Shown here: positions 3,423 to 57,237 of the stretch, piece after piece
How the letters are laid out: the number at the start of each line of letters is the position of its first letter
Numbering within the stretch: position 1 is the stretch's first letter
Assembly (NCBI GenBank): GCA_029378245.1
Contig: JARKIF010000002.1
Location: forward strand, 3,100,001-3,164,000
Length of the DNA stretch: 64,000 nucleotides
Direction of reading: 5' to 3'
Origin: Roridomyces roridus
Taxonomy: Eukaryota > Basidiomycota > Agaricomycetes > Agaricales > Mycenaceae
Program-made: the position numbers and the translations under genes
The notes under the pieces: model-generated
Databases searched by the model: none
What the model saw: only the letters and a program-made list of their open reading frames with translations
Told to the model about the DNA's origin: nothing

Positions 3423-4506
3423 CATCAGGAAAAACCTCCCTGGATATTTTATCGCAAATCTTTCAAAAATATCTCGCAGCTCAAATATTTTGCAGTCATT
3501 CTCGAAACTTTTGCCCAATGTTGACAAAGTTTCCAAAATGGAGATTTTGCTTTTCATCAGTATGACATTGGGAACCTGATCAAAATGCAGTACATTAAAG
3601 GTAGCTGCTGTACACCTGTATAAAGTACCAATTCCAACTGACCAGAGCTTGTCCACCAAAATTTCTGAAAGCTTTGCAAAAATATCACAACTTTTTTTGG
3701 GGAGCCAGAAATTTCGAGGTATTTCTCAGCAAACTGGCCAAACTTTTTTTGGTGGGCCAGATATTTTGAGGTATGTTTCAGCAAATTTCCCAAACTTTCT
3801 AGTCATCCATCCACAGCCAGGAAGTCTTGTATTCCAGGTCACCAACTCACCTCAGTCTTCTGGTATAGAGTCTGTGGTGCACCTCAAACAAGATCAGTCT
3901 CTTTGGACTATGAAGTGGAGGCACATCTGCCCTTGATTGGCTTTCATCTCTCACTAAGCCCATCCCTGAGTGCTCTTCTGTTGGTGCATAATACTGTTGG
4001 ACTCATGGGGTCACATCATGGGAGCTAAGATTGCCAGACTCATGTCTCTATTGTAGTGTAGTAGTAAGCTTCCCCCTTTGTGTTGTCTGTACCTTTTACA
4101 GGAGGTTCCTCGTTCGACTCCCCTTTGAAACATCATTTAATTATCCTTGTCATTTAAATAAAATAGCCTTAGCTACTGAGATCCCAATCACTTCTGTAAG
4201 TTCCTGTCAGTCATTGATTATCAGCTGTGCCTGACTGTTCCTGATCAACAATCAGTGGGCAGAGCTGATGGTGAATGTTTTGCTCCCACTGAGATGCAAT
4301 GTTCCCCCTCTGCTTCATTCTTCATTTCTGCTCTGTTGGCAAGGTTCAACCAATGCCAATATCCACTCCAAAAGTGCCAAAAGTTTTGGTATTTTTGTTG
4401 GGACTAACATATTCTTGCTCATTCTTCGGATATTCAGCTATTCTCAATATTTTTGGCAAATTTTGGCAAAATGTGCCAAAAATACCTGGGGAGGTGTTTC
4501 CTGATG
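3423..4506. mobile_element. Non-autonomous inverted-repeat element, 1084 bp
   Basis: The ends are inverted repeats of about 28 bp: the left starts CATCAGGAAAAACCTCCC and the right, read on the other strand, starts CATCAGGAAACACCTCCC. Compared with blocks 2 and 3 (near 9460 and 23420), the sequence is a clean insertion into the C1 remnant flank. A 2-bp duplication (TC) is the best-fitting target-site duplication. The inside is AT-rich with many short repeats and no transposase-sized frame. A sequence resembling a tRNA B box (GTTCGACTCCC) lies near 4110. The superfamily is not assigned. Confidence 0.7.
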
Positions 4507-5215
4507 TCTGAATCTGAGCTGCGTGACACGCCAGGTACCGCAGACGAGGACGAAGCACGAGCGCGGGGAGGGTGCCCGTGAGCAGCACAAGCTCCGGGGT
4601 TTCGTGAGGAATCATCTTGTACCAGTGTCTATTAGAGAGAAAGTCAAGTTCGAAACGGCTCCATAGCGAAGGAGTCTCCATGATGAGTTGGTGCCTTCGA
4701 GAGCAAATTTGAGATACCCTGACCAAATCAGCGTTCGTTGCGTACCGCATCTCTGTGGGCGTCCTGGTTTCGTTGCCTCTTCCCAGGGCCGACGTAGCAC
4801 GAAGCCAAGGTGACTCGACCAGAATTTCCGTGGCAGGGAGTAGACGGACGGACAAATCAAAGGAAAACGAGACAGAGACGCGCGTAGTCTTGAGCAGCAG
4901 CCCGTTTGCCTTCTTCTGTATCGAGGGCAGTCCTGAGGCGGAGATCTTCTGCATCAAGGTATGCGGCTGAGGAGGCTGGATGGCACGGGATTGAAGGTGC
5001 AGGGGATCCGTCTCCCGTGAAGCGCGCGCGCACTCTGCTCTTTTGAGGCTATTCTTGAGGCGGAGACTCAATCTCTGTGTCATGACGCTCTGCGGCCGAT
5101 GTAGAGACAATGGTTCGACAGTGAGTGGCTTGGGACGGAGATGGAGTGTGGTTGGAGTCCCAGAGACTGCGTGGTTCTGTCTCCTGCGTCATTTGAGAAT
5201 GTCGCGTCGGAGGGA
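4507..5215 (-). pseudogene. Broken family-B F-box remnant (C1)
   Basis: The minus strand reads pieces of the family-B protein: fragments of the coiled-coil and F-box region, then ETPSLW and ELDFL, then a jump to the C-terminal LVLLT / YLACHAAQIQ region. Roughly the middle half of the protein is missing. C2 and C3 share the same jump, so the deletion came before the blocks were copied. It is divergent from B1, whose start is about 70 bp away. Its downstream side carries the 1084-bp insertion. Confidence 0.6.
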
Positions 5216-5283
5216 GGAAGAGAGATTCATCAATTTGTTGGCACAGACAAATGTAAACGCGACTTTCCTCTGTCGCCACCACA

Positions 5284-6939
5284 ATGGCAGAACCGTGTAC
5301 ATGCGCTTTCCAACGCCACCTCTTCTCCCAATGCACGCAGGAGAAGGAACTACGCGACTTACTGCGTTCCAACGACCCTCCATCCAAGTTCCAGGTCGCT
5401 CACTGCCGATCCATCTCAACCTCTTTGCCAGCGGAGCTCGAACGATACGACGACGAGATTCGTCGTCTCAATGCGGCTCTTTTGAAGGCAGAATCCGAGC
5501 GCGTCACTGTACAAGACTACTTCCGCCTCTGCGATGCTGTCATTTCCCCAGTCCGCCGACTCCCCGCGGAAATCCTGGTGGAGATATTCGGTCACTTTGC
5601 GACCGCGCTGCATTGGCCTTGGTTGGATTTCACCAAAAGTGACACCGTCGAGCAGGAAATGGGACGCGTGGCAAACGTGGATCTCCTGCGCATTGCCGAA
5701 GTCTGCCCTCGGTGGCACGAACTCGTCATAGGAACCCCCTCGTTATGGAGTTGCATAGAGCTTGACATATGCCAGTGGGCGGCATTCGATTCACGCCTCC
5801 TCCTCTTGCTCAAAACTGTGTTGGATCGTGGAGGCACTTTCTCACTGGATCTCGGCATCGTCTGGGGTGAAGGAGATGCCACTTCTCACATCCTGGAGCT
5901 CTTAGCCTCGTATTCCACGCGATGGCACCATGTAGCATTCATGACTTGGACGTCTCCACTCGACGAATACTCTCAACTTTCCGCCATTGCGGGCAATCTG
6001 CCCCTTCTACGCAGCCTTGCAATCGACGTGGGCTGGGAAGACACCGAGGCGATGACTTTTTTTGAAGGTGCCCCTCGACTTGTGGAAGTCTGCTTTAACG
6101 GATTGCCCGCCAAACTGCCCAAGTTGCCTCTGGAACAGTTGAAGTCTATGGACCTTGGTGCCTCGGGACCAGACGATTTGACGCACATTACAGCTACTAC
6201 CATGACTCGTCTTTCCGGGCAGGTGGCAATCACTTTCTATTCCGCTACCTGGGAAGAACAGGTGGCTACCATCCGGGTAGTCCCAAGAGTTTCCGATGTC
6301 CTCGGACTTTCAATCTGTGTGGAGGGTGAGTTCGATGATGAACATGTTCGTTCAGCCATGAGGGACTGGATGATCCACCTCACGCTACCGCACCTGGACC
6401 GTCTGCAGTTTGATTACACCGATTACGTGGGTGTCCCACTGCCTTGGCGAGCCGACCACTTTTTGGCGCTCGCCCATCGGTCGTCCTTCTCCAGCCATCT
6501 CCGCGTCCTAGAATTGGACCTGGTACTTCTCACTGAAGCGGAGCTTTTCGAGATGTTAGACGTGCTGCACGCCTTGGAAAATTTGACCATTTCCGACCAC
6601 AAGCGGATTCCTGGTGCATCCACAGAATACCTTCTTCTCACCGACTCTCTTCTCCATCGTCTCACCTGGACGCCAGGTCCCGCATGCCTCGTGCCTGCCC
6701 TTAGCTACTTGGGCTGCCACTCGCTGCTCAAATTTGACGACGGCGTTTACCGAGACTTTGTGTTGTCGAGAATTCGTCCAGGACGGAACGAGCTTGGTCC
6801 GTTTGAGGTGGAATTACTCTGGGATTCGGACAATCATCGCGATTTGGATTCAGGTGTGCTGGCGCAGTTCAAGGAGCTCCAATCGTGCGGCGAGTTGTTG
6901 TTTTCTCTTGCACCGAGTCCCATGTTTGAAGGGCGGTGA
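5284..6939 (+). CDS. F-box protein with leucine-rich tail, family B (B1)
   Basis: Single-exon gene, 551 aa, starting at an ATG in the context ACAATGG. N-terminus: cysteine-containing MAEPCTC, the conserved block LRDLLRSNDPP (about 24-34), a coiled coil at about 50-75 (ELERYDDEIRRLNAALL), then an F-box from about 92 (RRLPAEILVEIF). The remainder has irregular leucine-rich repeats (LPLLRSLAI, LPLEQLKSM, FSSHLRVLEL). Such proteins usually bind Skp1 through the F-box and substrates through the repeats; the substrate is unknown. Complete and unbroken, it best represents the ancestral form of the six B copies. The flanking 3-prime sequence TGAAAAATGTGTATCTTAC is kept in several copies. Confidence 0.85.
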   Translation: MAEPCTCAFQRHLFSQCTQEKELRDLLRSNDPPSKFQVAHCRSISTSLPAELERYDDEIRRLNAALLKAESERVTVQDYFRLCDAVISPVRRLPAEILVEIFGHFATALHWPWLDFTKSDTVEQEMGRVANVDLLRIAEVCPRWHELVIGTPSLWSCIELDICQWAAFDSRLLLLLKTVLDRGGTFSLDLGIVWGEGDATSHILELLASYSTRWHHVAFMTWTSPLDEYSQLSAIAGNLPLLRSLAIDVGWEDTEAMTFFEGAPRLVEVCFNGLPAKLPKLPLEQLKSMDLGASGPDDLTHITATTMTRLSGQVAITFYSATWEEQVATIRVVPRVSDVLGLSICVEGEFDDEHVRSAMRDWMIHLTLPHLDRLQFDYTDYVGVPLPWRADHFLALAHRSSFSSHLRVLELDLVLLTEAELFEMLDVLHALENLTISDHKRIPGASTEYLLLTDSLLHRLTWTPGPACLVPALSYLGCHSLLKFDDGVYRDFVLSRIRPGRNELGPFEVELLWDSDNHRDLDSGVLAQFKELQSCGELLFSLAPSPMFEGR

Positions 6940-7144
6940 AAAATGTGTATCTTACTACTCAACATGTTGTCGACTGTTGCACTCTAGTTATTCTTTTCCT
7001 CCAGCTTAGTATGCGATGAACGGCAAGGGTCTGTTGGAAAGTTGGATTCAATTGACTGTTGAAGGACAATAATTAAGTATATAAGATCAAGGCAAGCCGC
7101 AACGAAGACGCAAAGGGGATCACACAAACCGTGATCGCGTCACA

Positions 7145-7158
7145 ACCAAGGTTGACTC
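7145..7158 (+). promoter_or_regulatory. Shared upstream motif of family A (A2 copy)
   Basis: ACCAAGGTTGACTC, about 17 bp before the A2 start codon. It differs by one base from the A1, A3 and A4 copies. Confidence 0.4.
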
Positions 7159-7174
7159 AGAACTCTCACCACCA

Positions 7175-8835
7175 ATGCCATCCAGAGTCCACAGGCACTT
7201 TTTCCCGTTGAATTTCAAGATTACTGCTAACTTCTCTCAGATCTTTTCACAAAATACGACCCGTGGGTCTCTTAGATTTGTCCAAAGACACCATGTTGGA
7301 AGTCATGCGGCATCTGGCGATTCCAGATGTCGTACGCCTCTTGCAGGTGCGGCATGGTACAACACGCGCGCTGTGAGCGAGCTGAACTCTAGTTCAGACC
7401 TGCTCCTCAATCCACAGTCTATCTCACGAGTGCACCTTCTGGATTCTGCTTGTGGAGGCCACTCGGGCCACATACCCATTAGGATGCCCCAGATATGCGG
7501 ATCTATCGCAATACAATCTCCAGACCCTCAAGGACCTCATTACCTCTCGGTTCAAGCTGCAAAGAAATTGGAACCTCGAGTTTCCGAAGGTTGTCGACCT
7601 ACAGGTAACCTCGCTCGATGAATGCGTCAAAATCCTCGGTCTGGTACAAGGCACGCCTATCGCACTCGTCCATATGCCCAAGACTGAGGATGTCGCTTGT
7701 TGGGACGTACAGCTGGGCGCGCAATTTCCGTTCCCGCCGATTAAGGTCGGTGGGAAGCTCAACAACGTATCCGAGCCATTTGTTTCGTCCTACGGGGTCT
7801 GCTCTTTTGTCGTGGTTGGGGGTAAAGTTGAAGATACCAGCAAAGGGTAATGATGAGTCCTCTAATCTTTGAGCAGCTCATGGAATCTCCTTTAGTGAAC
7901 GTTGGCAATATATCATAACTATCAAGCACGACAATCGCAAAGCGACTGGTTTCGACAGTGTCCGCACCGCGACCGCATACCCAACCAGCCCTGACGGGTC
8001 AATATTCTTGACCAGGGACGTGATTGGTGCACTGATTGCCAACAAGCGCGAAGACCACTGCACAATTGTAACAAGCAAGATTGGAGACGGTCCTGGGTCT
8101 GAATCCGAGAGCCCCATGAAGTTGAATTGCACGGCGAGTGAAGTTGTTAAAGCTGCTATTCAACCGCTCACTCAGCTCTAGTTTTCGGACCGCCACCTAA
8201 TGGTTGCCTTCACATGCCGAGGCCATTTCTTCAACATCCTCGAAGACGGTTCCAGGGCTCAAATCCAACATGTATCACGGGAACGTCTCACACATAGCGA
8301 AAAGGTTGCCACAGTATATGAGGCAGACATCCTGGACGTCGGAAAAACCTGCCGTCCAATGTACCCCATCCTCCCGAGTTGTCCGTCTTACGGCGTCGCC
8401 GCAGCCTTTGTGCGCGAAGCAAAAGTACGTGACGAAACCACCTTCACCTTCCTCCCTGCCACGCCTATAAACTCGCCAACCGGGGACGATGGCGTGTCTT
8501 CTCCCTTAACTTTCCCCTTCCCCTGTCCAACAGCCCGCGTGCCCGGAAGAACAATCGATCCCAGCCTCATGTGCATGGACCACGGTGGCTTGAATATCGT
8601 CGGCGTCCTCCAAGACCCTAACCCCATGAATTCCCCGAACCTTGTCCTGGTACACTACCATCCCGAGACGCAGACAACTTCGGTCCACTATCCTGATGTA
8701 CCGCCTTCCCTCGATCTCGACGAGATGCAAAATTTGTGGGCGGATGATACGGCCGGTGTCATATACTTGATTGGGAAGGAGGAGTTGACTGGGAAAAAGT
8801 CACAGTGGAGCCTTTTCGCGCTGCGATATGCGTGA
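7175..8835 (+). CDS. F-box protein, family A (A2)
   Basis: Model: exons 7175-7194, 7241-7346, 7398-7846, 7896-8133, 8182-8835, about 488 aa. The N-terminus MPSRVHR joins across intron 1 to an F-box (LDLSKDTMLEVMRHLAI), followed by QTCSSIHSLS and the long blade-like tail ending LRYA. Introns 7195-7240 and 8134-8181 both begin with GC rather than GT (GCACTT and GCGAGT); no GT choice keeps the frame. Introns 2 and 3 are ordinary GT-AG. No disabling change is visible. Probable SCF substrate receptor; target unknown. Confidence 0.75.
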
Positions 8836-9120: not shown

Positions 9121-9268
9121 CTGTGGTGTTGTCGCGTTCAATACTAGTCCAGGACGAGTCTATCGGCATTGCAAGCTCGATGTTGATGAGCCAGGCTGCG
9201 ACGCTGCGTATACGGCCTTAAATGCGCCAGTTTTGCGCCCGGTGACGGTCAACTGGGAGTTCAATTGA
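9121..9268 (+). pseudogene. Last-exon remnant of the barwin-like gene (D2)
   Basis: Second copy of the final exon of the gene at 22847-23299, ending in the sequence for VNWEFN and a stop. It carries an insertion near 9131-9150 like that in D1 and an extra small insertion that breaks the frame. Earlier exons are missing. It lies between A2 and C2. Confidence 0.6.
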
Positions 9269-9461
9269 AGATGCTACATTCCAATGCTAGTTATTCAACT
9301 CTATCCATATCTGCCGATTCGTTTCGCTCTCCGTCTGAGAATTCAGCTGGTGGAAGTTGTCAGGGTCCCAGTGCGATTCCACCTCAAACGGACAGCCTCC
9401 CGTATCGGCGCCCAGACACCAATCGCGAGAGAATCACGGTACACCTTGGCGTTGGTTCTTG

Positions 9462-10215
9462 AATCTGAGCAGCGTGTGACACGTCAGGTACCGGACGAAG
9501 CACGAGTGTGGGGAGGATGCTCGTGAGCAGCACAAATTGCGGGGTTTTGTGGAATCATCTTGCACTAGTGCCTAGAGAGAAAGTCGAGTTCGAAGCAGCT
9601 CCATAACGAAGGAGTCTCCATCATGAGTTGGCGCCATCGAGAGTAAGTTTGAGATACTTTGACCAAGTCAGCGTTCGTTGCCTACCGCATCTCTGCGGGC
9701 AAGGATTGTATCTCTGCTCGTTTCGGTGCCTCTCACAAGGGAGAGCGTAGCACAGAGACCAAATTCACTGAATATCTCGACCAGAATCTCCGCAGGGAGC
9801 CGACGGACAAAGGACATGACAGCGAGGCAGAGACGTGCGTAGTCTTGAACAGCGACCCGTTCGCCTTCTTCAAGTTCTATTTCGAGGGCAGTGCTGAGGA
9901 GAACTTCTGCATCAAGGTCTGCGCATGCGGCTGAGGAGATAATGGTTGGAGGCTGAAAGGCACGGGATTGAGGGTGCAAGGGACCTGTCTCCTGTAAAGG
10001 GGGCGCGCGCTCTGCTCTTTCGAGGCGGAGAATCTCTGCATCATTGACGCTCCAGCTCTGCGGCCGATGTAGAGACAATGGTTCGACCGTGAGTGGCGTG
10101 GGATGGATATGCGAGGTGGAATTCAAGAGGGAGAATGTCGTGTCGGAGTCGAAGATGAGGAGAGTTTCATCAATTTGGTGGCACAAACACCGAGACTCAC
10201 CAAGAGTGACTTTCT
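9462..10215 (-). pseudogene. Broken family-B F-box remnant (C2)
   Basis: On the minus strand a readable N-terminal part survives (RVAVQDYARLCLAV and VRRLPAEILVEIFSEF). It then runs into frameshifted sequence corresponding to METPSLWSCFELDFL and a fragment of the C-terminus. The internal deletion is the same as in C1 and C3. It is head-to-head with B2, a few tens of bases from its start. Confidence 0.65.
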
Positions 10216-10326
10216 TCACCACCACACATGGCAGAAACGTGTACTTGCGCGTTTCGACGAGATATTATCCCTCAAATCACGCAGGAGAAGGCACTACGCG
10301 ATTTACTGCGTTCCAACGACCCTCCA

Positions 10327-10690
10327 CATCAGACTTTTAACAGTTTGATTGTCAGGTCGTACGACCTGACAACCTCTGCCAAAATGCGACAACCAGCCGA
10401 TTTTCCACAACCTCACAACCTTATGTCCAAAAGCCACAAGGTCCACTGTTCGACTCTCGATCAGCGCATCATTTCATTTTTCTATTTCTTCCGTGGAGGC
10501 TCTGATACTGTCAGTCTGCTGGTGAAAAATGCGGGGACAGTCTTTGCAATGTATTTTGTGAACTCTAATGGATCCCCATTACATTGTGGAAAGATAAAAT
10601 TAAAGGTCTTCGTTTGGATTCGAACTCGTGAGATTGTCCACAACCTCACGACCGCCAAAACCCGGCAATCAGATGGTTAAAAGGCTGATG
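10327..10690. mobile_element. Non-autonomous inverted-repeat element, 364 bp
   Basis: Inserted in the B2 coding sequence. The ends are imperfect inverted repeats (CATCAGACTTTTAACAG left; right end read backwards CATCAGCCTTTTAACCA). A 2-bp duplication (CA) fits the uninterrupted sequence of paralogue B1. Inside are a perfect palindrome (GTCAGGTCGTACGACCTGAC), a direct repeat of CCACAACCTCAC (near 10404 and 10638), and tRNA B-box-like words on both strands (GTTCGACTC near 10450; GAGTTCGAATCC on the minus strand near 10620). It shares the terminal CATCAG and a B-box-like core with the 1084-bp element. No coding capacity. Confidence 0.75.
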
Positions 10691-12090
10691 CATCCAGGTT
10701 CCAGGTCGCTCACTGCCGATCCATCTCAACCTCTCTGCCAGCGGAGCTCAAGCGCTACGACGACGAGATTCTTCGTCTCCAAGCAGCTCTTTTGAGGGCA
10801 GAATCCGAGCGCGCCGCTGTGCAAGACTACTCCCGCCTCTGCGATGCTGTCATTTCCCCTGTCCGCCGACTCCCATCGGAAATCTTGGTGGAGATATTCG
10901 GCCACTTCACGACCGCGCTGCATTGGCCTTGGTTAAATTTTCTCAGAAGTGTTATCATCGAGGAGGAGATGCGACGCGTCGCAAACGTGGATCTCCTGCG
11001 CGTTGCCCAAGTCTGCCCTCGGTGGCACGAACTCGTCATGGGAACCCCCTCGTTATGGAGTTGCATAGAGCTTGACCTGTGCAAATGGACGGCACCCGAT
11101 TCAAGCCTCCTCCTCTTGCTCAAAACTGTTTTGGATCGTGGAGGAAATTCTCCGCTCGATCTTGGCATCATCTGGGGTGAAGGAGACGCCACTTCTCGCG
11201 TCCTGGAACTCTTAGCCTCGTATTCTCGGCGATGGCGCCATGTAGCATTCCTGACGTCTCAACCCCATCAAAATGCCCACCTTTCCGCCATTGCGGGCAA
11301 TCTTCCCCTTCTACGCAGCCTTGCATTCGAACTGGGGTGGGAAGAGACCGAGACAATCACTTTTTTCGAAGATGCCCCTCGACTTGTGGGGGTTGGCTTT
11401 AGCGGATTGCCCGCCAAACTGCCCACATTGCCTCTGGAACAATTAAAGTTTTTGATTTTGGGCGATGTGGGGCCATACGAATTGGCGGGTGTCGCGACTA
11501 CCATGACTCGTCTTTCCGGCGGGGAGGTCACGATCACCGTCTACTCCAGTACTTGGGAGGAAGCAGCCACCATCCAGGCGGTCCCAAGGATTTCCAACAT
11601 CACCGACCTTTGGGTCAATGTCCGGGATGAGTTCGGTAATGAAGCTGCTCATTCAGCCATGACGGACTGGATGCTCCATTTCACGCTACCCCGCCTCCAA
11701 TATCTGCAGCTTGATTACACCCATTACGCGGGTGTCCCACTGCCTTGGCCAGCCGACCACTTTTTGGCCCTCGCCCATCGGTCGTCCTTCTCCAGCCATC
11801 TCAGCGTCCTAGACTTGGACCCCGTACTTCTAACTGAAGCGGAACTTCTCCAGATGTTAGACGTGCTGCAATCCTTGGACAATTTGACCATTTCCGACCA
11901 CAAGCGGATTTCTGGTGCACTCACAAATCATGTTCTGCTCACCGACTCTCTTCTCCACCGTCTCAGCTGGACGCCAGGTCCCGCATGCCTCGTGCCTGCC
12001 CTTAGCTACTTGGGCTGCCACACGCTGCTCAAATTTGACGACGGCGTTTACCGAGACTTTGTGTTGTCGAGAATTCGTCCAGGACGGAAC

Positions 12091-12736
12091 TAGTGCTGGC
12101 CAAAAATACGATATGGGAAAATATATTTTGAATATATTCAGGTGAATATGGATATGATACGAGCTCTGGGGTCCAATCAGATATGAATACGTCTGAATGT
12201 GAATACAATAAAATATGGATATGAATACAATATGCAGTGAGCATATTGAAATATATTCAGATACGCCGGCCACTGGCAATGAGGCTCAAATCAGGCTCGG
12301 AGAGCACGGCAATCACAGAATTGATAATGATCTTGATGATCGGCACCGGTGTCCCGCTTTGCTAACAGTGATTTGCTTGTGCAAAATACCCAAAATGGAA
12401 ATTTGATTTGAATGCCGAGTGATCCTTGGTCCGAATACTTCTTCTCCATGAACTTGTTAGCTACTGGTTGACATTACAATGCTGGAGAGCGTGTCAGCCA
12501 ATGTTGTGACACAATGTTGGGCCAAGACACAACCAAGTGGGGACTCACAAGGGCCTGGACTGGGTGGTTCATGCAGGGTAGAATATATTTGAATATATCC
12601 AAAATATATTGTATCGTATTCACCATGGTGAATACGATACACTAGAAATACGATACAAGTGCAGTGAGGTGAATATGATATGGATATGAATATAATACGG
12701 GATTTAGCGTATCGTATTCATATTTGGCCAGCACTA
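12091..12736. mobile_element. hAT-type miniature element, 646 bp
   Basis: Terminal inverted repeats TAGTGCTGGCCAAA and TTTGGCCAGCACTA flank AT-rich DNA full of ATATTC / GAATAT words. A perfect 8-bp target-site duplication (GACGGAAC at 12083-12090 and 12737-12744) brackets it, and the same 8 bases occur once in the uninterrupted paralogues. An 8-bp duplication with TAGTG-type ends is the signature of the hAT superfamily. No transposase frame is present, so it would have been moved in trans. The inverted repeats contain GTGCTG at the left and GGCCAG at the right, in splice-site order for the B2 sense strand. Confidence 0.85.
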
Positions 12737-13018
12737 GACGGAACGAGCGTGGCCCATTTGAGGTGGGATTATTCTGGGATTCGGACAATCAGCGCGATTT
12801 GGATTCAGGCGTGTTGGCACAATTCAAGGAGCTTCAATCGTGCGGCGAGTTGTTGTTTTCTCTTGCACCGAGTCCCATGTTCGAAGGGCGGTGAAAAATG
12901 TGTATCTTACTACTACTCAAAATGTAGTCGACTGCACTCTATTATTTTCCTCCCGCTTAATATAAGATCAAGGCAAGCCTCAAGACGAAGACACAAGGGA
13001 TCGCCAAACCGTGATCGA

Positions 13019-13034
13019 CAATCAAGGTTGACTC
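13019..13034 (+). promoter_or_regulatory. Shared upstream motif of family A (A3 copy)
   Basis: CAATCAAGGTTGACTC, about 17 bp before the A3 start codon. It lies in a longer upstream stretch of about 100 bp that A2 and A3 share. Confidence 0.4.
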
Positions 13035-13050
13035 AGAACTCTTACCATCA

Positions 13051-14854
13051 ATGCCATCCAGAGTCCACAGGCACTTTTTCCCGTTGAATGTTAAGACTCC
13101 TGCTAATTTCTCTCAGATCTTTTCACAAAATACGACCCGTGGGTCTCTTAGACTTGTCCGAAGACACCATGTTGCAAGTCATGTGGCATCTGGCGATTCC
13201 AGATCTCCGACGCCTATTGCAGGTGCGGCATAGCGTAATGTGCGCGCTACAAACGATTTGAACTCTGTGCCAGACATGTCGACACATCCGCGACGAGCCC
13301 ACCTTCTGGATTCCACTTGTGGAGGCCACTCGAGCCCTATACCCAATAGGATGCCCTAAATACGCCAACCTTTCACAGTACGATTCGGGCGAACTCCAGG
13401 ACCTCGTTTCTTTTCCATTCAAACTACAGAAAAATTGGAACCTCGAGTTCCCCAAGTTTGTCGACATGCAGAAGGTGACCTCGTTCAAGGGATGCGTTGA
13501 AACCCTGTTCAATGATGGCGAACGCGTTGACGGCGTCGACATTATCGGTCTGGTACCAGGCACGGATATAGTCGTCCTCCATACAACTACGCTGAAGACG
13601 GAGACGAAGGCGGTCCAGGTGCCGGAGCCAGAGACGAGGACGAGGACGAGGACGAGGGCGAAGGTGGAGGCGGAGGAGAAGGTGACGGTGACGGTGACGA
13701 CTCGGACAGGGCATCTTGTTTGTTGGGACTCGAAGCTGGCCGCGCCGTTCCCGTTACCGCCGATTGAGGTCGGTGGGCAGCTCAACCACGTGTCCGCGCC
13801 ATCTGAATCGGCTTATGGGGTCTACTCTTTTGTTGTTCTCGGGGGGAACGCCAAAGATCCAAATCCCGAGAAATTTGGGGAGGACGCCGAAGATCCGAGT
13901 CCCATGAAAGGGTAATATCTCTTCCAACTTTTACGAACAACTTATGGACTCTGTTAACAGAATCGAAAAATTTTGGCAGTACATTGTCAATATCAATCAC
14001 CACAGTCGCAAGGCGACGGGTATTGAAAGCGTCTGCACCGCGACCGACTATCCCCACTGCACTGACGGATCGATCTTCTTGACCTCGGACGTGGTCGGTT
14101 CAGTGACTGCCAAGACCAACGAAGACCACTGCACAATCACCACCAGCAGGATTAGTGACGGTGCCGGTGGTGAAGAATCCGCAAACCGCATGAAACTCAA
14201 TCACACGGCGAGTAAGCAGATCCAAGCAGCTATCTCACGCTCACTGAGTTCTAGATTTCCAAACGCCACCTAATGGTCCCCTTCACATACCAAGGCCATT
14301 TTTACAACATTTTCGAAGATGGTTTCATGGCTCGAATCCACCATGTTTCGCGGAAAAGTTTCACGTCCGGACGGTGTGAAAAGGCCACCCATGTGTATGA
14401 GGCGGAGGTCCTGGACGTCGGAAACACCTTTGGTGAAATGTACACGATCCTCCCAACTTGTGCGTCTTACGGCGTCGCAGCAGCCTTTGTGCGCCAAGCA
14501 AGTGTCGTGCGCCAAGTACGCGGCGTGCGCCAGGTCCGCCCCGAAACCACGTTTACCTTCCTCCCTGCCACGCCTGTGAGCTCGCCCACCGGGGACGATG
14601 GCGTCTCATCCCCCCTAACTTTCCCCTTCTCCTGTCCAACAGAGCGTGTTCCCGGGAGCCCAGTGGGTTCCAGCCTCGTATGTATGGACCACAGTGGCCT
14701 GAACATCGCCGCTGTCCTCGACAATCCTGACACCAGGTACTCCCGTAGGCTTGTCCTGGTACGCTACCACCCAGAGACTCGGTCAACTTCCGCACACTAC
14801 CCCGATGCGGAGATTCCGTTTGATTTTGACCAGGTGGTGGATGTGTGTGGATGA
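13051..14854 (+). CDS. F-box protein, family A, with shifted C-terminus (A3)
   Basis: Model: exons 13051-13070, 13117-13222, 13274-13911, 13961-14207, 14255-14854, about 536 aa. It starts like A2 (MPSRVHR, then LDLSEDTMLQVMWHLAI). Exon 3 holds a charged insert of about 40 residues encoded by GAC/GAG-type simple repeats, absent in the other copies. Near 14842 a two-base loss in a GTGTGTGTG run gives VDVCG and a stop; the other frame continues VDDTAGVIY to LRYA at 14942. The protein is therefore cut by about 35 residues, and it may be a young pseudogene or a tolerated truncation. Introns 1 and 4 need GC donors. Confidence 0.65.
13605..13700 (+). repeat. Simple repeat inside A3 exon 3
   Basis: Runs of GAGGAC, GAGGCG and GTGACG units encode alternating acidic/basic/valine residues (TRTRTRTR, VTVTVT). 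The stretch keeps the frame open. It is a local expansion by slippage, found only in A3 of the four paralogues. Confidence 0.7.
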
Positions 14855-24069: not shown

Positions 24070-25725
24070 ATGGCAGAACCGTGTAAATGCGCTTTTCAAC
24101 GCCACCTATTTCCTCAATGTACGCAGGAGAAGGAACTACGCGACTTACTTCGTTCCAACGACCCTCCATCCACGTTCCAGGCCTCCCACTGCCGATCCCT
24201 CTCAACCGCTTCGCCAGCGGAGCTCGTGCGCTACGACGACGAGATCCTTCGTCTCAAGGCGGCTCTTTTGAGGGCACGATCCGACCGCGCCGCTGTACAA
24301 GACTACTCCCGCCTCTGCGATGCTGTCATTTCCCCCGTCCGCCGACTGCCCGCGGAAATCTTGGTGGAGATATTCGTTTACTTCACGACCGCGCTGCATT
24401 GGCCTTGGTTAGAGTCTCCCAGAAGTGACAGCATCGAGGAGGAGATGCGACGCGTCGCGAACGTGGATCTCCTGCGCATTGCCCAAGTCTGCCCTCGGTG
24501 GCACGAACTCGTTATGGGAACCCCCTCGTTATGGAGTTGCATAGAGGTTGACATGCGCCATTGGACGGCACCCGGTTCACGCCTCCTCCACCTGCTGAAA
24601 ACTGTTTTGGATCGCGGAGGGGGTTTTCCGCTGGATCTTGGCATCGTCTGTGGTGACGGAGATGTCACTTCTGGCGCCCTGGAGCTCTTGGCTTCGTATT
24701 CCCTGCGATGGCGACATGTAGCATTCCGGGTGTGGACGACTAAGCTCGCCGAATACTCCAAACTTTCCGGCATTGCGGGCAATCTTCCCGTTCTACGCAG
24801 CCTTGCAATTGACCCAGGGTGGAATGACCTCGGGGTGATGACTATCTTTGAAGGTGCCCCTCGACTTGTGAAAGTTTTCCTCCGCGGATTTCCGGACGAG
24901 CTGCCCGAATTGCCTTGGGAACAATTGGAGTATGTGGGCTTCGAGGATGTGGGACCAGAAGAATGGGCGGGTGTTGCGACTACCGTGGCTCGTCTTTCCG
25001 GCAGGGTGTTAATCACCGTCTACTCCAGTAGTTGGGAAGAAACAGCTACCATCCCGGCTGTCCCAGCAGTTTCAAATATCCTCCGCCTTTCATTACGTAT
25101 AGGCCCCGAGCTCGATAATGAACCTGCGCGTTCAGCAATCAAGGACTGCATGCTGCAGTTTCACGCTACCCTTCCTCGAATCTCTCCGTTTCTACTCCCA
25201 ATACGCGGGTGTCCCTCTGCCTTTCCCAACCGACGATTTTTTGGCGCTCGCTCATCGGTCGTCCTTCTCCAGCCATCTCACGGTCCTTATGCTGGATCCC
25301 GTCCTTGTTACTCAAGCAGAGCTTCTCCAAATGTTGGAAGTGCTGCCGTCATTGGACAATTTGTCCATCTCCGACCACAAGCAAATTCCTGGTGCACCCA
25401 CAGAATTCGTTCTGCTCAGCGATTCTCTTCTCCGGCATCTCACCTGGACCTCAGGTCCTGCATGCCTTGTGCCTACCCTCAGCTATTTGGGCTGTCACAC
25501 GCTGCTCAGATTCGATGACTCCGTTTATCGGGACTTCGTGTTGTCGAGAATTCTTCCAGGGCGGAACGAGCGTGGCCCATTTGAGGTGGAATTATTTTGG
25601 GACTCGGACAATCATCGCGATTTGGATTCAGGTGTGTTGGCCCAGTTCAAGGAGCTCGAATCGTGCGACGAGTTGTGGTTTTCTCTTCAACCGAGTCCCA
25701 TGTTCAAAGCCGGGCGCCGAAAAAT
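24070..25725 (+). pseudogene. Frameshifted family-B F-box gene (B3)
   Basis: Starts MAEPCKC like B1. The coiled coil and F-box (RRLPAEILVEIF) are intact. Near 25153 one extra base (CTGCAGTTTC where B5 has CTGCGTTTC) shifts the frame after about 360 codons; the rest of the protein continues in another frame to about 25,700. The final codons are also changed, so the usual stop after MFEGR is lost and the second frame runs to 25828. The first 65 residues are nearly identical to B4, whereas the part after LLHLLKTVLDRGG is nearly identical to B5. A truncated product of roughly 480 aa could still be made. Confidence 0.75.
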
Positions 25726-25905
25726 GTGTACATCATATCTTGCTACTGACAAAAAAAATCTTAACGCCAATCTTCTGGATGATATCCCTCATGTGATGAA
25801 CGGCCTTTCGTCTCAACGAACGCGATAGGGGGTTCCCCTTGACGCGGATGATGCTGACACATTGTGGGTCCAGTAACCACTTGACCGGGTGCCCCTCTTT
25901 CCCTC

Positions 25906-29903: not shown

Positions 29904-30383
29904 TGTGGTGGCGACAGAAGAAAGTCGCTCTTGTTTGTGCATGCATGCAAACAAATTGATGAAACTCTCTTCCGCAGAGCACTTTTCCCAAATCACCAAC
30001 TCCCTCTTGACCAGGTCACCTGGAAGTCGGTGACCTGCATCGTCCCATCCCTTACTGCCCTGGACCCTCCTCAAAGTTGAGGACGACGTTTATCGCAAAT
30101 TTGTACTAAGTATCACAAGTACGACTCTACAAGCACCTGATTCGAGGTGGTTGTGCTAGTACCCAGCCATGATCGCGAATTAGACTGCGAGATGATGGGT
30201 GAATTCGAGGCCCTTCGGTCGCGGTGTAAATTCCTTTCCACTGTCGGTCCCAGTGAGTTGCTCGCCGAAAGCAAGTCAGAGATGAATAATCGTAGCCTTA
30301 CAATTTGAAAAAAAACTTGCGGGAGGAAAGAATACATGGATTGCAGCAGTTAACAACATTTTGAGTAGCAAAATACACATTTT
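29904..30383. other. Spacer between B4 and B5
   Basis: No gene seen. The left part holds the B4 leader, and the right part is the B5 3-prime flank with the shared TTTTTCACCGCCCTTC ending. About 250 bp in the middle match nothing else in the window. Confidence 0.4.
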
Positions 30384-32027
30384 TCACCGCCCTTCAAACA
30401 TGGGACTCGGTGAAAGAGAAAACAACAACTTGCCGGACGATTGAAGCTCCGTGAACTGTGCCAACACGCCTGGAGCCAAGTCGCGACGATTTTCAGAATC
30501 CCAAAATAACTCCACCTCGAATGGACCAAACTTGTTTCGTCCTGGTGCAATTCTCGACAACACGAAGTCCCGATAAACGGAGTCATCGAATCTGAGCAGC
30601 GTGTGGCAGCCCAAATAGCTGAGGGTAGGCACAAGGCATGCAGGACCTGAGGTCCAGGTGAGATGCCGAAGAAGAGAATCGTTGAGCAGAACGAATTCTG
30701 TGGGTGCACCAGGAATCTGCTTGTGGTCGGAGATGGACAAATTGTCCAATGACTGCAGCACTTCCAACATTTGGAGAAGCTCTGCTTGAGTAACAAGCAT
30801 GGGATCCAGCATAAGGACCGTGAGATGGCTGGAGAAGGACGACCGATGAGCGAGCGCCAAAAAATCGTCGGTTGGGAAAGGCAGAGGGACACCCGCATAT
30901 TGGGGGTAGAAACGGAGAGATTCGAGGAAGGGTAGCGTGAAACGCAGCATGCAGTCTTTGATTGCTGAACGCGCAGGCTCATTACCGAGCTCGGACCCTA
31001 TACGTAATGAAAGGTCGAGGATATTTGAAACTATTGGGACGGCTGGGATGGTAGCTGTTTCTTCCCAACTACTGGAGTAGACGGTGATTAACACCCTGCC
31101 GGAAAGACGAGCCACGGTAGTCGCAACACCCGCCCATTCGTTTGGTCCCACATCCTCGAAGCCCACATACTCCAATTGTTCCCAAGGCAATTCGGGCAGC
31201 TCGTCCGGAAATCCGCGGAGGAAAACTTTCACAAGTCGAGGGGCACCTTCAAAGATAGTCATCACCCCGAGGTCATTCCACCCTGGGTCAATTGCAAGGC
31301 TGCGTAGAACGGGAAGATTGCCCGCAATGCCGGAAAGTTTGGAGTATTCGGCGAGCTTAGTCGTCCACACCCGGAATGCTACATGTCGCCATCGCAGGGA
31401 ATACGAAGCCAAGAGCTCCAGGGCGCCAGAAGTGACATCTCCGTCACCACAGACGATGCCAAGATCCAGCGGAAAACTCCCACCGCGATCCAAAACAGTT
31501 TTCAGCAGGTGGAGGAGGCTTGAATCGGGTGCCGTCCACTGGCACATGTCAAGCTCTATGCAGCTCCATAACGAGGGAGTTCCCATAACGAGTTGGTGCC
31601 AACGAGGGCAGACTTGGGCAATGCCCAGGAGCTCCACGTTTGCGACGCGTCGCATCTCCTGCTCGATGGAGTCACTTCTGGGAAAATCTAACCAAGGCCA
31701 ATGCAGCACGGTCGTGAAGTGACCGAATATCTCCACCAGGATTTCCGATGGGAGTCGGCGGACGGGGGACATGACCACATTGCAGAGGCGGGAATAGTCT
31801 TGCACAGCTGTGCGCTCGGTTTCTGCGCTCAAAAGAGCCGCTTGGAGCCGACGAATCTCGTCGTCGTATCGCTCGAGCTCCGCTGGCAAAGAGGTTGAGA
31901 TAGATCGGCAGTGAGCGGCCTGGGACGCGGATGGAGGATCGTTGGAACGCAGTAAGTCGCGTAGTTCCTTCTCCTGCGTACATTGAGGAAAGAGGTGGCG
32001 TTGAAAAGCATATGCGCATTCGGTCAT
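30384..32027 (-). CDS. F-box protein, family B (B5)
   Basis: Single exon, 547 aa, starting MTECAYAFQRHLF. Coiled coil ELERYDDEIRRLQAALL, F-box RRLPSEILVEIFGHF, leucine-rich tail ending MFEGR. From the middle onward it is nearly identical to B3 (LAIDPGWNDLGV, LPWEQLEYVGFEDVG). B5 is intact at the base where B3 is shifted, so it serves as the reference for that lesion. Confidence 0.85.
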   Translation of the reverse strand: MTECAYAFQRHLFPQCTQEKELRDLLRSNDPPSASQAAHCRSISTSLPAELERYDDEIRRLQAALLSAETERTAVQDYSRLCNVVMSPVRRLPSEILVEIFGHFTTVLHWPWLDFPRSDSIEQEMRRVANVELLGIAQVCPRWHQLVMGTPSLWSCIELDMCQWTAPDSSLLHLLKTVLDRGGSFPLDLGIVCGDGDVTSGALELLASYSLRWRHVAFRVWTTKLAEYSKLSGIAGNLPVLRSLAIDPGWNDLGVMTIFEGAPRLVKVFLRGFPDELPELPWEQLEYVGFEDVGPNEWAGVATTVARLSGRVLITVYSSSWEETATIPAVPIVSNILDLSLRIGSELGNEPARSAIKDCMLRFTLPFLESLRFYPQYAGVPLPFPTDDFLALAHRSSFSSHLTVLMLDPMLVTQAELLQMLEVLQSLDNLSISDHKQIPGAPTEFVLLNDSLLRHLTWTSGPACLVPTLSYLGCHTLLRFDDSVYRDFVLSRIAPGRNKFGPFEVELFWDSENRRDLAPGVLAQFTELQSSGKLLFSLSPSPMFEGR

Positions 32028-55382: not shown

Positions 55383-57029
55383 ATGACCGACTGCACATGC
55401 CCTTTTCAACGGCACCTCTTTCCTCAATGTACGCAGGAGAAGGAATTACGCGACTTACTGCGTTCCAACGATTCTCCATCCGCGTTCCAGGTTGCTCACT
55501 GCCGATCCATCTCAACCTCTTTGCCAGCAGAGCTCGAGCGATACGACGACGAGATTCTTCGTCTCAACGCGGCTCTTTTTAGAGCAGAATCCGAGCGCGC
55601 AGCTGTGCAAGACTACTCCCGCCTCTGCGATGCGGTCATGTCCCCCGTCCGCCGACTGCCCGCGGAAATCTTGGTGGACATATTTGGTTACTTCACGACC
55701 GCGCTGCATTGGCCTTGGTTAGAGTTTCCCAGAAGTGACAGCATCGAGGAGGAGATGCGACGCGTCGCGAACGTGGAGCTCCTGCGTGTCGCCCAAGTCT
55801 GCCCTCGGTGGCACCAACTCGTCATGGGAACCCCCTCGCTATGGAGTTGCATAGAGCTTGACCTGTGCCAGTGGACGGCACCTGATTCGCGGCTCCTCCT
55901 CTTGCTGAAAACTGTTCTGGATCGTGGAGAGAGTTTCCCGCTCGATCTTGGCATTGTCTGGGGTAACAGAGACGCCACTTCTCGAGTCCTGGAGCTCTTA
56001 GCCTCGTATTCCACGCGATGGCGCCATGTAGCATTCATGACTTGGACGTCTCCACTCGACGAATACTCCAAACTTTCGGCCATTGCGGGCAATCTCCCTC
56101 TTCTAAGTAGCCTTGCAATCAACACAGGGTGGAATGACGTCGAGGCGATCACTTTTTTTGAAGGTGCCCCTCAACTTGTGGACGTTCGCTTTAACGGATT
56201 GCCTGCAAAACTGCCCAAATTGCCTCTGGAACAACTCAAGAACCTGGGCCTTGGTGCTTCGGGACCAGAAGATTTGACGCACGTTGCGGCTACCGCGACC
56301 CGTCTTTCTAGGGAGGTGGCAATCGCTGTCTTCTCTAGTACTTGGGAGGAAACAGCCACCATCCAGGCGGTCCCAAGAGTTTCCAATGTCCACGTGCTTT
56401 CAGTCCGCGTGATTGGGCCGTTCGATGCAGCACCTGCTCGTTCAGCGATGAGGGACTGGATGCTCCATTTCACACTACCCCACCTCGATCATCTGTGGTT
56501 TGATTGTTCCCAATACGCGGGTGTCCCTCTGCCTTGGCCAGCCGACCACTTTTTGGCCCTCGCCCATCGGTCGTCCTTCTCCAGCCATCTGACGGTTCTA
56601 GAACTGGATCCTGTATTCATCACCGAAGCGGAGCTTCTCCAGGTGTTGGATGTGCTGCAATCCTTGGACAATTTGACCATTTCCGACCACAAACGGATCC
56701 CTGGTGCACCGACAGAATACGTTCTACTTACCGACGCTCTTCTCCGCTGTCTCACCTGGACGCCAGGTCCCGCATGCCTCGCGCCTGCCCTTAGCTACTT
56801 GGGCTGCCACACGCTGCTCAAATTCGACGACGACGTTTACCGAGACTTTGTGTTGTCGAGAATTGGTCCAGGACGGAACGAGGATGGTCCGTTTGAGGTG
56901 GAATTATTTTGGGATTCGGACAATCAGCGCGACTTGGATTCAGGTGTGTTGGCGCAGTTCAAGGAGCTCCAATCGTGCGGCGAGTTGTTGTTTTCTCTTG
57001 CACCGAGTCCCATGTTCGAAGGCCGGTGA
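55383..57029 (+). CDS. F-box protein, family B (B6)
   Basis: Single exon, 548 aa, starting MTDCTCPFQRHLF. It has the same architecture as B1: LRDLLRSNDSP block, coiled coil, F-box RRLPAEILVDIFGYF, leucine-rich tail ending MFEGR. It is very close to B1 in the middle (MTWTSPLDEYSKLSAIAG). Intact. It is followed by the K2 and K3 kinase-like copies, as B3 is followed by K1. Confidence 0.85.
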   Translation: MTDCTCPFQRHLFPQCTQEKELRDLLRSNDSPSAFQVAHCRSISTSLPAELERYDDEILRLNAALFRAESERAAVQDYSRLCDAVMSPVRRLPAEILVDIFGYFTTALHWPWLEFPRSDSIEEEMRRVANVELLRVAQVCPRWHQLVMGTPSLWSCIELDLCQWTAPDSRLLLLLKTVLDRGESFPLDLGIVWGNRDATSRVLELLASYSTRWRHVAFMTWTSPLDEYSKLSAIAGNLPLLSSLAINTGWNDVEAITFFEGAPQLVDVRFNGLPAKLPKLPLEQLKNLGLGASGPEDLTHVAATATRLSREVAIAVFSSTWEETATIQAVPRVSNVHVLSVRVIGPFDAAPARSAMRDWMLHFTLPHLDHLWFDCSQYAGVPLPWPADHFLALAHRSSFSSHLTVLELDPVFITEAELLQVLDVLQSLDNLTISDHKRIPGAPTEYVLLTDALLRCLTWTPGPACLAPALSYLGCHTLLKFDDDVYRDFVLSRIGPGRNEDGPFEVELFWDSDNQRDLDSGVLAQFKELQSCGELLFSLAPSPMFEGR

Positions 57030-57237
57030 AAAATGTGTATCTTGCTACTCAGAAATGTGTTATTTTCTTGACGCCCGCATCTTCTGAATGATAGTATTCT
57101 CATGCGTCGAACGGCGTTTTGTCTCAACGGGCGCGATAGGTTACTGTTACCGGAATGCCGGCGCATTGTGGGTCCAACAACCCTGACCGAGATTCTGACC
57201 AGCCAGGGGACTCTTTTCCTCATTCTGACTTTCCCTC

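What the first reader, a model, noticed from the sequence alone, without database searches (positions are those of the whole stretch)
12083..12744. hAT miniature element in an exon whose ends could act as an intron
The 646-bp element has an 8-bp target duplication and TAGTGCTGGCCA / TGGCCAGCACTA ends. Read on the coding strand of B2, the left end contains GTGCTG and the right end GGCCAG. Splicing from that GT to that AG leaves TA + CACTA + GACGGAAC, exactly 15 nt, so the F-box protein would continue in frame with five extra residues. This is how introner-type transposons make new introns. The length is large for a fungal intron, so the idea is a hypothesis.
Basis: partly seen in the sequence, partly recalled or inferred. 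Interest (0 to 1): 0.78.

Follow-up and report, generated by a model that had tools for sequence, protein, structure and literature searches.

The report
Mobile DNA breaking a mushroom gene
A short, common jumping-DNA element has landed in one of several duplicated mushroom genes and most likely breaks it; its ends happen to spell the minimal signals of an intron, but no better than scrambled sequence would.

Summary
A 646-bp element (12091-12736) with TAGTGCTGGCCA inverted ends and an 8-bp duplication (GACGGAAC) sits in an F-box gene, and GT(12093)-AG(12731) splicing would leave 15 in-frame nt. It belongs to a multicopy non-autonomous hAT-like family in a mushroom genome, Roridomyces roridus by protein matches. 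The intron idea is not supported. The 15 nt is a constant of the family (2+5+8), not a feature of this site. The proposed donor scores below 24 of 25 introns that I curated by eye from the same genome, and those introns are 40-56 nt long, against 639 here. Shuffled elements at the same site give an equal or better frame-restoring intron in 60% of 300 trials. Both proposed splice sites lie in the predicted terminal stem. The same gene is also interrupted upstream by a second, unrelated element (10327-10690, Plavaka-B-like ends, CA duplication) with its own in-frame stop; a second, 99.7%-identical contig carries both insertions. No protein model of this gene was among 51 homologues found. Most likely: a recent double insertion made a pseudogene. 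RNA-seq was not available, so weak splicing is not excluded (about 4%).

The parts
12091..12736 (+). 646-bp non-autonomous hAT-like element (MITE)
   Evidence: 70 matches in own genome (partial and self included); nearest full copy at another site 99.7% identical (L003)
12083..12090 (.). left 8-bp target site duplication GACGGAAC
12737..12744 (.). right 8-bp target site duplication GACGGAAC
12091..12102 (+). left terminal inverted repeat TAGTGCTGGCCA; its first codon TAG is an in-frame stop for B2
12725..12736 (+). right terminal inverted repeat TGGCCAGCACTA
12093..12098 (+). proposed donor GTGCTG (score -0.12; below 24 of 25 curated donors; rank 23 of 31 GTs in 12083-12744)
12726..12731 (+). 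proposed acceptor GGCCAG (ordinary CAG acceptor; best pair among 14 frame-restoring GT-AG pairs scanned)
10228..10326 (+). 5' coding part of B2 (ATG to ...RSNDPP), homologous to the start of the paralogues
10327..10690 (+). second insertion: 364-bp Plavaka-B-like MITE, ends CATCAG...CTGATG, CA duplicated at 10325-10326 and 10691-10692; in-frame stop TAA at 10678-10680
   Evidence: family features from passages of PMC12730594
10691..12090 (+). main coding part of B2, F-box-like PF12937
12745..12894 (+). 3' coding part of B2 with stop codon; lost if the element's TAG is read

Best explanation
A recently moved, non-autonomous hAT-like transposon inserted itself into the last coding stretch of an F-box gene (B2) in a tandem F-box cluster of a mycenoid mushroom. 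Its TAG end truncates the reading frame by about 50 residues. Because a Plavaka-type MITE with an in-frame stop also sits near the 5' end of the same gene, B2 is most likely a pseudogene. Shown: the two insertions, their ends and duplications, the stops, and the empty sites in paralogues. Inferred: loss of function and absence of productive splicing.
For: Exact ends, 8-bp duplications and many copies. Paralogues at 5381, 55462, 30319(-), 24167 and on C34 have the empty site and read through it; the last two are not open over their whole length. A second insertion 10327-10690 with TAA in frame is absent from the paralogues compared. Contig C218 (99.7% identical, collinear where compared) carries both insertions. 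No B2 model among 51 homologues, the best being 78% identical, although proteins of five neighbouring paralogues are listed. Donor weak and length far outside the curated range. Splice potential equalled by 60% of 300 shuffles. The RNA fold pairs the two ends in a terminal stem, z -5.74 on 20 shuffles.
Against: No RNA data, so lack of splicing is not shown. The proposed pair is the best of 14 frame-restoring GT-AG pairs scanned across the element, whereas the end-to-end pair is the best in only 10.5% of 400 in-silico placements of the element in the B2 frame. GTGC starts 7 of the 25 curated donors (5 GTGCGT, 2 GTGCGC), so the donor is weak mainly at +5, +6 and the exon side. Joined across the 3' insert the frame is still open, and differences between the two contigs are few (5 codons in the main ORF: 2 non-synonymous, 3 synonymous; 1 more, non-synonymous, in the 5' part). 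The insertions are young, so decay is not expected yet.
Confidence: 0.86

Rival explanations
1. The element acts as a new intron (introner-like): GT at 12093 and AG at 12731 are spliced, adding YTRRN to the F-box protein.
For: Exact in-frame arithmetic; best of 14 frame-restoring pairs. A precedent with the same layout exists in Aureococcus: 4 bp of the element plus the 8-bp duplication stay in the mRNA (PMC9860276, passages). Ds elements of maize have been reported as spliced from messages (only titles in a reference list seen).
Against: Donor score below 24 of 25 curated introns and length 639 vs 40-56 nt. Not better than shuffles. Donor and acceptor lie in the predicted terminal stem. Upstream insert with a stop. 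No gene model found. Three other copies inside long frames lie in multicopy ORFs.
Confidence: 0.04
2. B2 is transcribed and makes a shortened F-box-family protein ending at PGRN, from an internal start after the upstream insert, with a changed or dominant-negative role.
For: The frame from the upstream insert to the element is open, about 470 codons.
Against: The first in-frame ATG after the upstream insert lies inside the F-box region (MRRVANV; Pfam match at residues 62-129), so the F-box would be cut. No such protein is among the homologues found.
Confidence: 0.05
3. The element belongs to another 8-bp-duplication superfamily (Zisupton of the KDZ group) and is not hAT; consequences for B2 are the same.
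For: KDZ transposases are abundant here (160 matches, a lower bound) and Zisupton makes 8-bp duplications (PMC12730594). No hAT dimerisation match lies near a listed end (closest 56 kb).
Against: The TAGTG end fits the recalled hAT end rule (YARNG). hAT transposases are present (32 matches). None of the KDZ matches that were listed lies inside a pair of these ends (compared by eye; both lists were cut short).
Confidence: 0.2

Closest known systems
MarorhAT-4 and related non-autonomous hAT elements of Marasmius oreades (PMC9674265; passages seen)
   Same: Mushroom-forming fungus, non-autonomous, 597-631 bp, terminal inverted repeats, recent activity
   Different: Sequences not held, so ends were not compared; there an autonomous partner (MarorhAT-10) is known, here none was found
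Introners of Aureococcus sp. (PMC9860276, Fig. 2F legend and methods; passages seen)
   Same: Element with 8-bp duplication carrying both potential splice sites, leaving a few element bases plus the 8 bp in frame (12 bp there, 15 here)
   Different: There an ortholog comparison is reported, the cited example spans 77 positions, and the lineage is an alga; here no splicing evidence, 639 nt, a mushroom
Maize Ds elements spliced from messages (titles of Dennis 1988, Wessler 1991, Giroux 1994 seen in the reference list of PMC3260210; the first and last looked up and not held)
   Same: hAT element in an exon supplying splice sites (recalled; only titles seen)
   Different: Reported from maize RNA; here only sequence potential
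PlavakaB (PMC12730594; passages seen)
   Same: For the upstream insert: ends CATCA..TGATG and 2-bp duplication
   Different: 364 bp, too short for a transposase; a MITE of that type

Membership tests
hAT non-autonomous element (MITE) | 8-bp target site duplication | tested here: met
   of 31 distinct paired-end sites held, 24 exact, 2 with one mismatch, 5 without a clean one; exact at this site
hAT non-autonomous element (MITE) | short terminal inverted repeats of hAT type (YARNG, recalled) | tested here: met
   TAGTGCTGGCCA/TGGCCAGCACTA
hAT non-autonomous element (MITE) | mobilised by a hAT transposase sharing the ends | tested here: inconclusive
   32 PF05699 matches, none within 55 kb of a listed end (100 of 103 ends). 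Three longer copies of 2.1-2.6 kb were read for ORFs: two have no internal ORF over 183 aa, the third (L042) has ORFs of 355 and 275 aa, the 275-aa one gag-like by eye, not searched. One sub-threshold PF04937 match
Introner | copies spliced as introns in mRNA | not testable with these tools
   no RNA-seq
Introner | usable splice sites in host context | tested here: not met
   donor below 24 of 25 curated introns, length 639 vs 40-56; no better than shuffles
Introner | many copies inside coding exons of host genes | tested here: not met
   7 of 27 sites lie in a frame of 200 codons or more against 35% of 1620 random points (4 further sites left out); B2 is the only one shown to lie inside a Pfam-recognised gene, with 9 pieces from 8 of the 27 loci scanned
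Plavaka B (upstream insert) | ends CATCA..TGATG and 2-3 bp duplication | tested here: met
   CATCAG..CTGATG, CA duplicated; duplication checked at this site and in its C218 copy only

The most novel reading that the evidence does not exclude
A hAT-type cut-and-paste element acts as an introner that carries both its splice sites in a mushroom: any copy with an 8-bp duplication would leave 15 nt, so exonic copies would stay in frame, and here one rescues an F-box gene (with the upstream Plavaka MITE also removed or bypassed).
Probability: 0.04. Interest if true: 0.75.

Novelty: new member of a known kind. Interest (0 to 1): 0.2.

Why it matters
If the element were spliced, it would be a DNA-transposon introner in a mushroom. 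In the passages I saw of the large introner survey, the only fungi named are ascomycetes, their introners lack inverted ends and duplications, and 'basidiomyc' does not occur in its main text (PMC9860276). As it stands, the site is a clear example of two unrelated small transposons breaking one gene in a fast-changing F-box cluster. It also warns that a frame-restoring GT...AG is nearly always available in a 650-bp insert.

Tried and rejected
Looked for an autonomous partner: of the paired ends 2.1-2.6 kb apart (C81, C112, C257, C361, C301) I listed ORFs for three. L045 (C301) and L041 (C81) have no internal ORF over 183 aa; L042 (C112) has ORFs of 355 and 275 aa, the latter gag-like by eye, so probably a nested other element (not searched further). 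L043 and L044 were fetched, but their ORFs were not listed. hAT, KDZ and DUF659 matches lie outside the paired ends, as far as listed. Considered that other exonic copies show the intron pattern: the long frames at L007, L024 and L051 belong to multicopy ORFs (16, 29 and 18 matches, fragments included) without Pfam hits, most likely other mobile elements, so they say nothing about host introns; L057 had no Pfam hit, and L041 and L059 were not followed up. Four fetched sites with paired ends but no clean duplication (L042, L049, L050, L054) were left out of the 27 used; single-ended copies were not used. Considered better introns across the element: none of 14 frame-restoring pairs beats the proposed one. 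Considered selection as a test: dN/dS of B2 to three paralogues is 0.39-0.51, like three paralogue pairs at 0.34-0.46, but the insertions are too young for this to inform. Automatic enumeration of chaperonin introns was too ambiguous; I curated 25 by eye instead, guided by recalled chaperonin conservation; one (donor GTTTCA) is doubtful and was kept. One possible 3'-terminal intron in L062 was dropped as uncertain. Paper searches: hAT + MITE + spliced + new intron + target site duplication gave 0 papers holding all five terms; Roridomyces roridus + genome + transposable element gave 0.

Full report
What is there. The element is at 12091-12736, 646 bp, with perfect 12-bp inverted ends and GACGGAAC on both sides. 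The host gene, B2, is an F-box-like gene (PF12937, E 8e-10), one of a tandem set. Paralogues at 5381-7027, 55462-57049, 30319-31948(-) and 24167-25730, and one on contig C34, have the empty site and read through it; those at 24167 and on C34 are not open over their whole length in one frame.

Whose genome. The assembly has 90.8 Mb in 501 contigs. Contig C218 (32.7 kb) is collinear and 99.7% identical over the stretches compared, window 3890-5926, 5929-8289 and 9200-13589, so it is probably the other nuclear haplotype, though a recent duplication is not excluded. It carries the same element (647 bp there) at the same place.

The element family. In this genome 70 BLAST matches reach E 0.001, partial and self matches included. 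The 12-base end occurs 52 times forward and 51 times reverse, against 2 and 0 for the reversed pattern. Of 31 distinct paired-end sites among the loci held, 24 have an exact 8-bp duplication, 2 one mismatch and 5 no clean one. The nearest full copy at another site is 99.7% identical (L003), so the insertion is young. hAT is the likely superfamily, but no transposase was linked to it: the nearest of 32 hAT dimerisation matches is 56 kb from a listed end (100 of 103 ends compared).

Is it an intron? Four tests bear on it. (1) Splice sites: I curated 25 introns by eye from seven stretches of chaperonin genes of the same genome; they are 40-56 nt (median 49) and 21 of 25 have G at +5. The proposed CTA|GTGCTG has T at +5 and scores -0.12, below 24 of 25 in leave-one-out scoring, 23rd of the 31 GTs in 12083-12744; 47% of all GTs in the held sequence score at least as well. 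In its favour, GTGC begins 7 of the 25 donors, and the acceptor and a weak branch site are within the range of the real ones. (2) Chance: the proposed pair is the best of 14 frame-restoring GT-AG pairs scanned, but all of 300 dinucleotide shuffles of the element also offer one, and 60% are as good or better; with the real element placed at 200 positions on both strands of the B2 frame, 81% of 400 placements reach the same score, though the end-to-end pair is the best one in only 10.5% of them. (3) Structure: the two ends pair in a terminal stem in the RNA fold (-204.8 kcal/mol, z -5.74 on 20 shuffles), with donor and acceptor in it. A stem can also bring splice sites together, so this counts only weakly. 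(4) Family: 7 of 27 sites lie in a frame of 200 codons or more against 35% of 1620 random points in the same flanks, so there is no sign of enrichment in coding sequence. Three of those frames (L007, L024, L051) belong to multicopy ORFs; B2 is the only site shown to lie inside a Pfam-recognised gene (9 pieces from 8 of 27 loci scanned). At L056 an F-box gene has the element just upstream of its likely start.

A second insertion. Compared with seven paralogous sequences, B2 carries an extra 364 bp at 10327-10690 after ...RSNDPP. Its ends are CATCAG...CTGATG and CA is duplicated; this matches what is reported for PlavakaB, 2 or 3 bp duplications and CATCA..TGATG ends (PMC12730594, passages). It has 43 matches in the genome, this one included. 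It puts TAA (10678-10680) in the B2 frame. C218 carries it too. A functional B2 would therefore need two inserts removed or bypassed; 51 GT-AG pairs could formally do so upstream, the best scoring 14.6, higher than the proposed pair's 9.2, which again shows how easily such pairs arise.

Gene models. Among 51 homologues of B2 (proteins of 0.55-1.75 times its 470 residues; only the 7998 candidates sharing most words were scored) the best is 78% identical. Five of the nearest lie on a contig of this length and map to the paralogues at 55383, 5284, 32027(-), the 24167 locus and 29531(-), none to B2. Two of the five carry a public name; the other three are plain window ORFs, for which the tool shows no source. 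So neither a spliced nor a truncated B2 protein of that size was found. This is moderate evidence only, because the collection is clustered and gene calling can skip genes.

Precedent. The layout is not absurd: Aureococcus introners leave 4 bp of element plus the 8-bp duplication in the mRNA (PMC9860276, passages and figure legend), and titles seen in a reference list report Ds elements spliced from maize messages. The same survey states that fungal introners lack inverted ends and duplications, and the passages I saw name only ascomycetes among fungi. A working hAT introner in a mushroom would thus look new, which is why I keep it as the novel case at 4%.

Verdict. Confirmed observation; the intron reading gains no support beyond chance from the tests I could run, and a double-hit pseudogene explains the sequence better. 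The missing RNA evidence is the main limit.

Noticed in passing
window 10327-10690: Plavaka-B-like 364-bp MITE (CATCAG..CTGATG, CA duplication) in the 5' coding part of the same F-box gene; 43 matches in the genome, the best at another site near 100% identical.
   Followed up: partly
L039/L038 (contig C218), relative to window 5926-5929: On the second contig the paralogue at 5284-6936 carries an insertion of about 1.57 kb with inverted ends resembling TTGATACG / CGTATCA; the window contig has the empty site. It is a presence/absence difference between two 99.7% identical contigs.
   Followed up: partly
whole genome G000: 160 matches to the KDZ transposase family (a lower bound) against 32 to the hAT dimerisation domain.
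   Followed up: no
L061-L067 (chaperonin genes): 2 of 25 curated introns begin with GCAAGT (L062, L066), and GTGC begins 7 of 25, GTGCGT being the commonest donor with 5.
   Followed up: partly
L041, L043, L044: Three 2.5-kb elements with the same ends share the same 8-bp duplication TTTCTGTC, so they are probably copies of one insertion in duplicated DNA.
   Followed up: no
L042, L049, L050, L054: Four paired-end sites lack a clean 8-bp duplication, but their flanks share 5-7 letters near the ends, as if the duplication had been altered after insertion.
   Followed up: no
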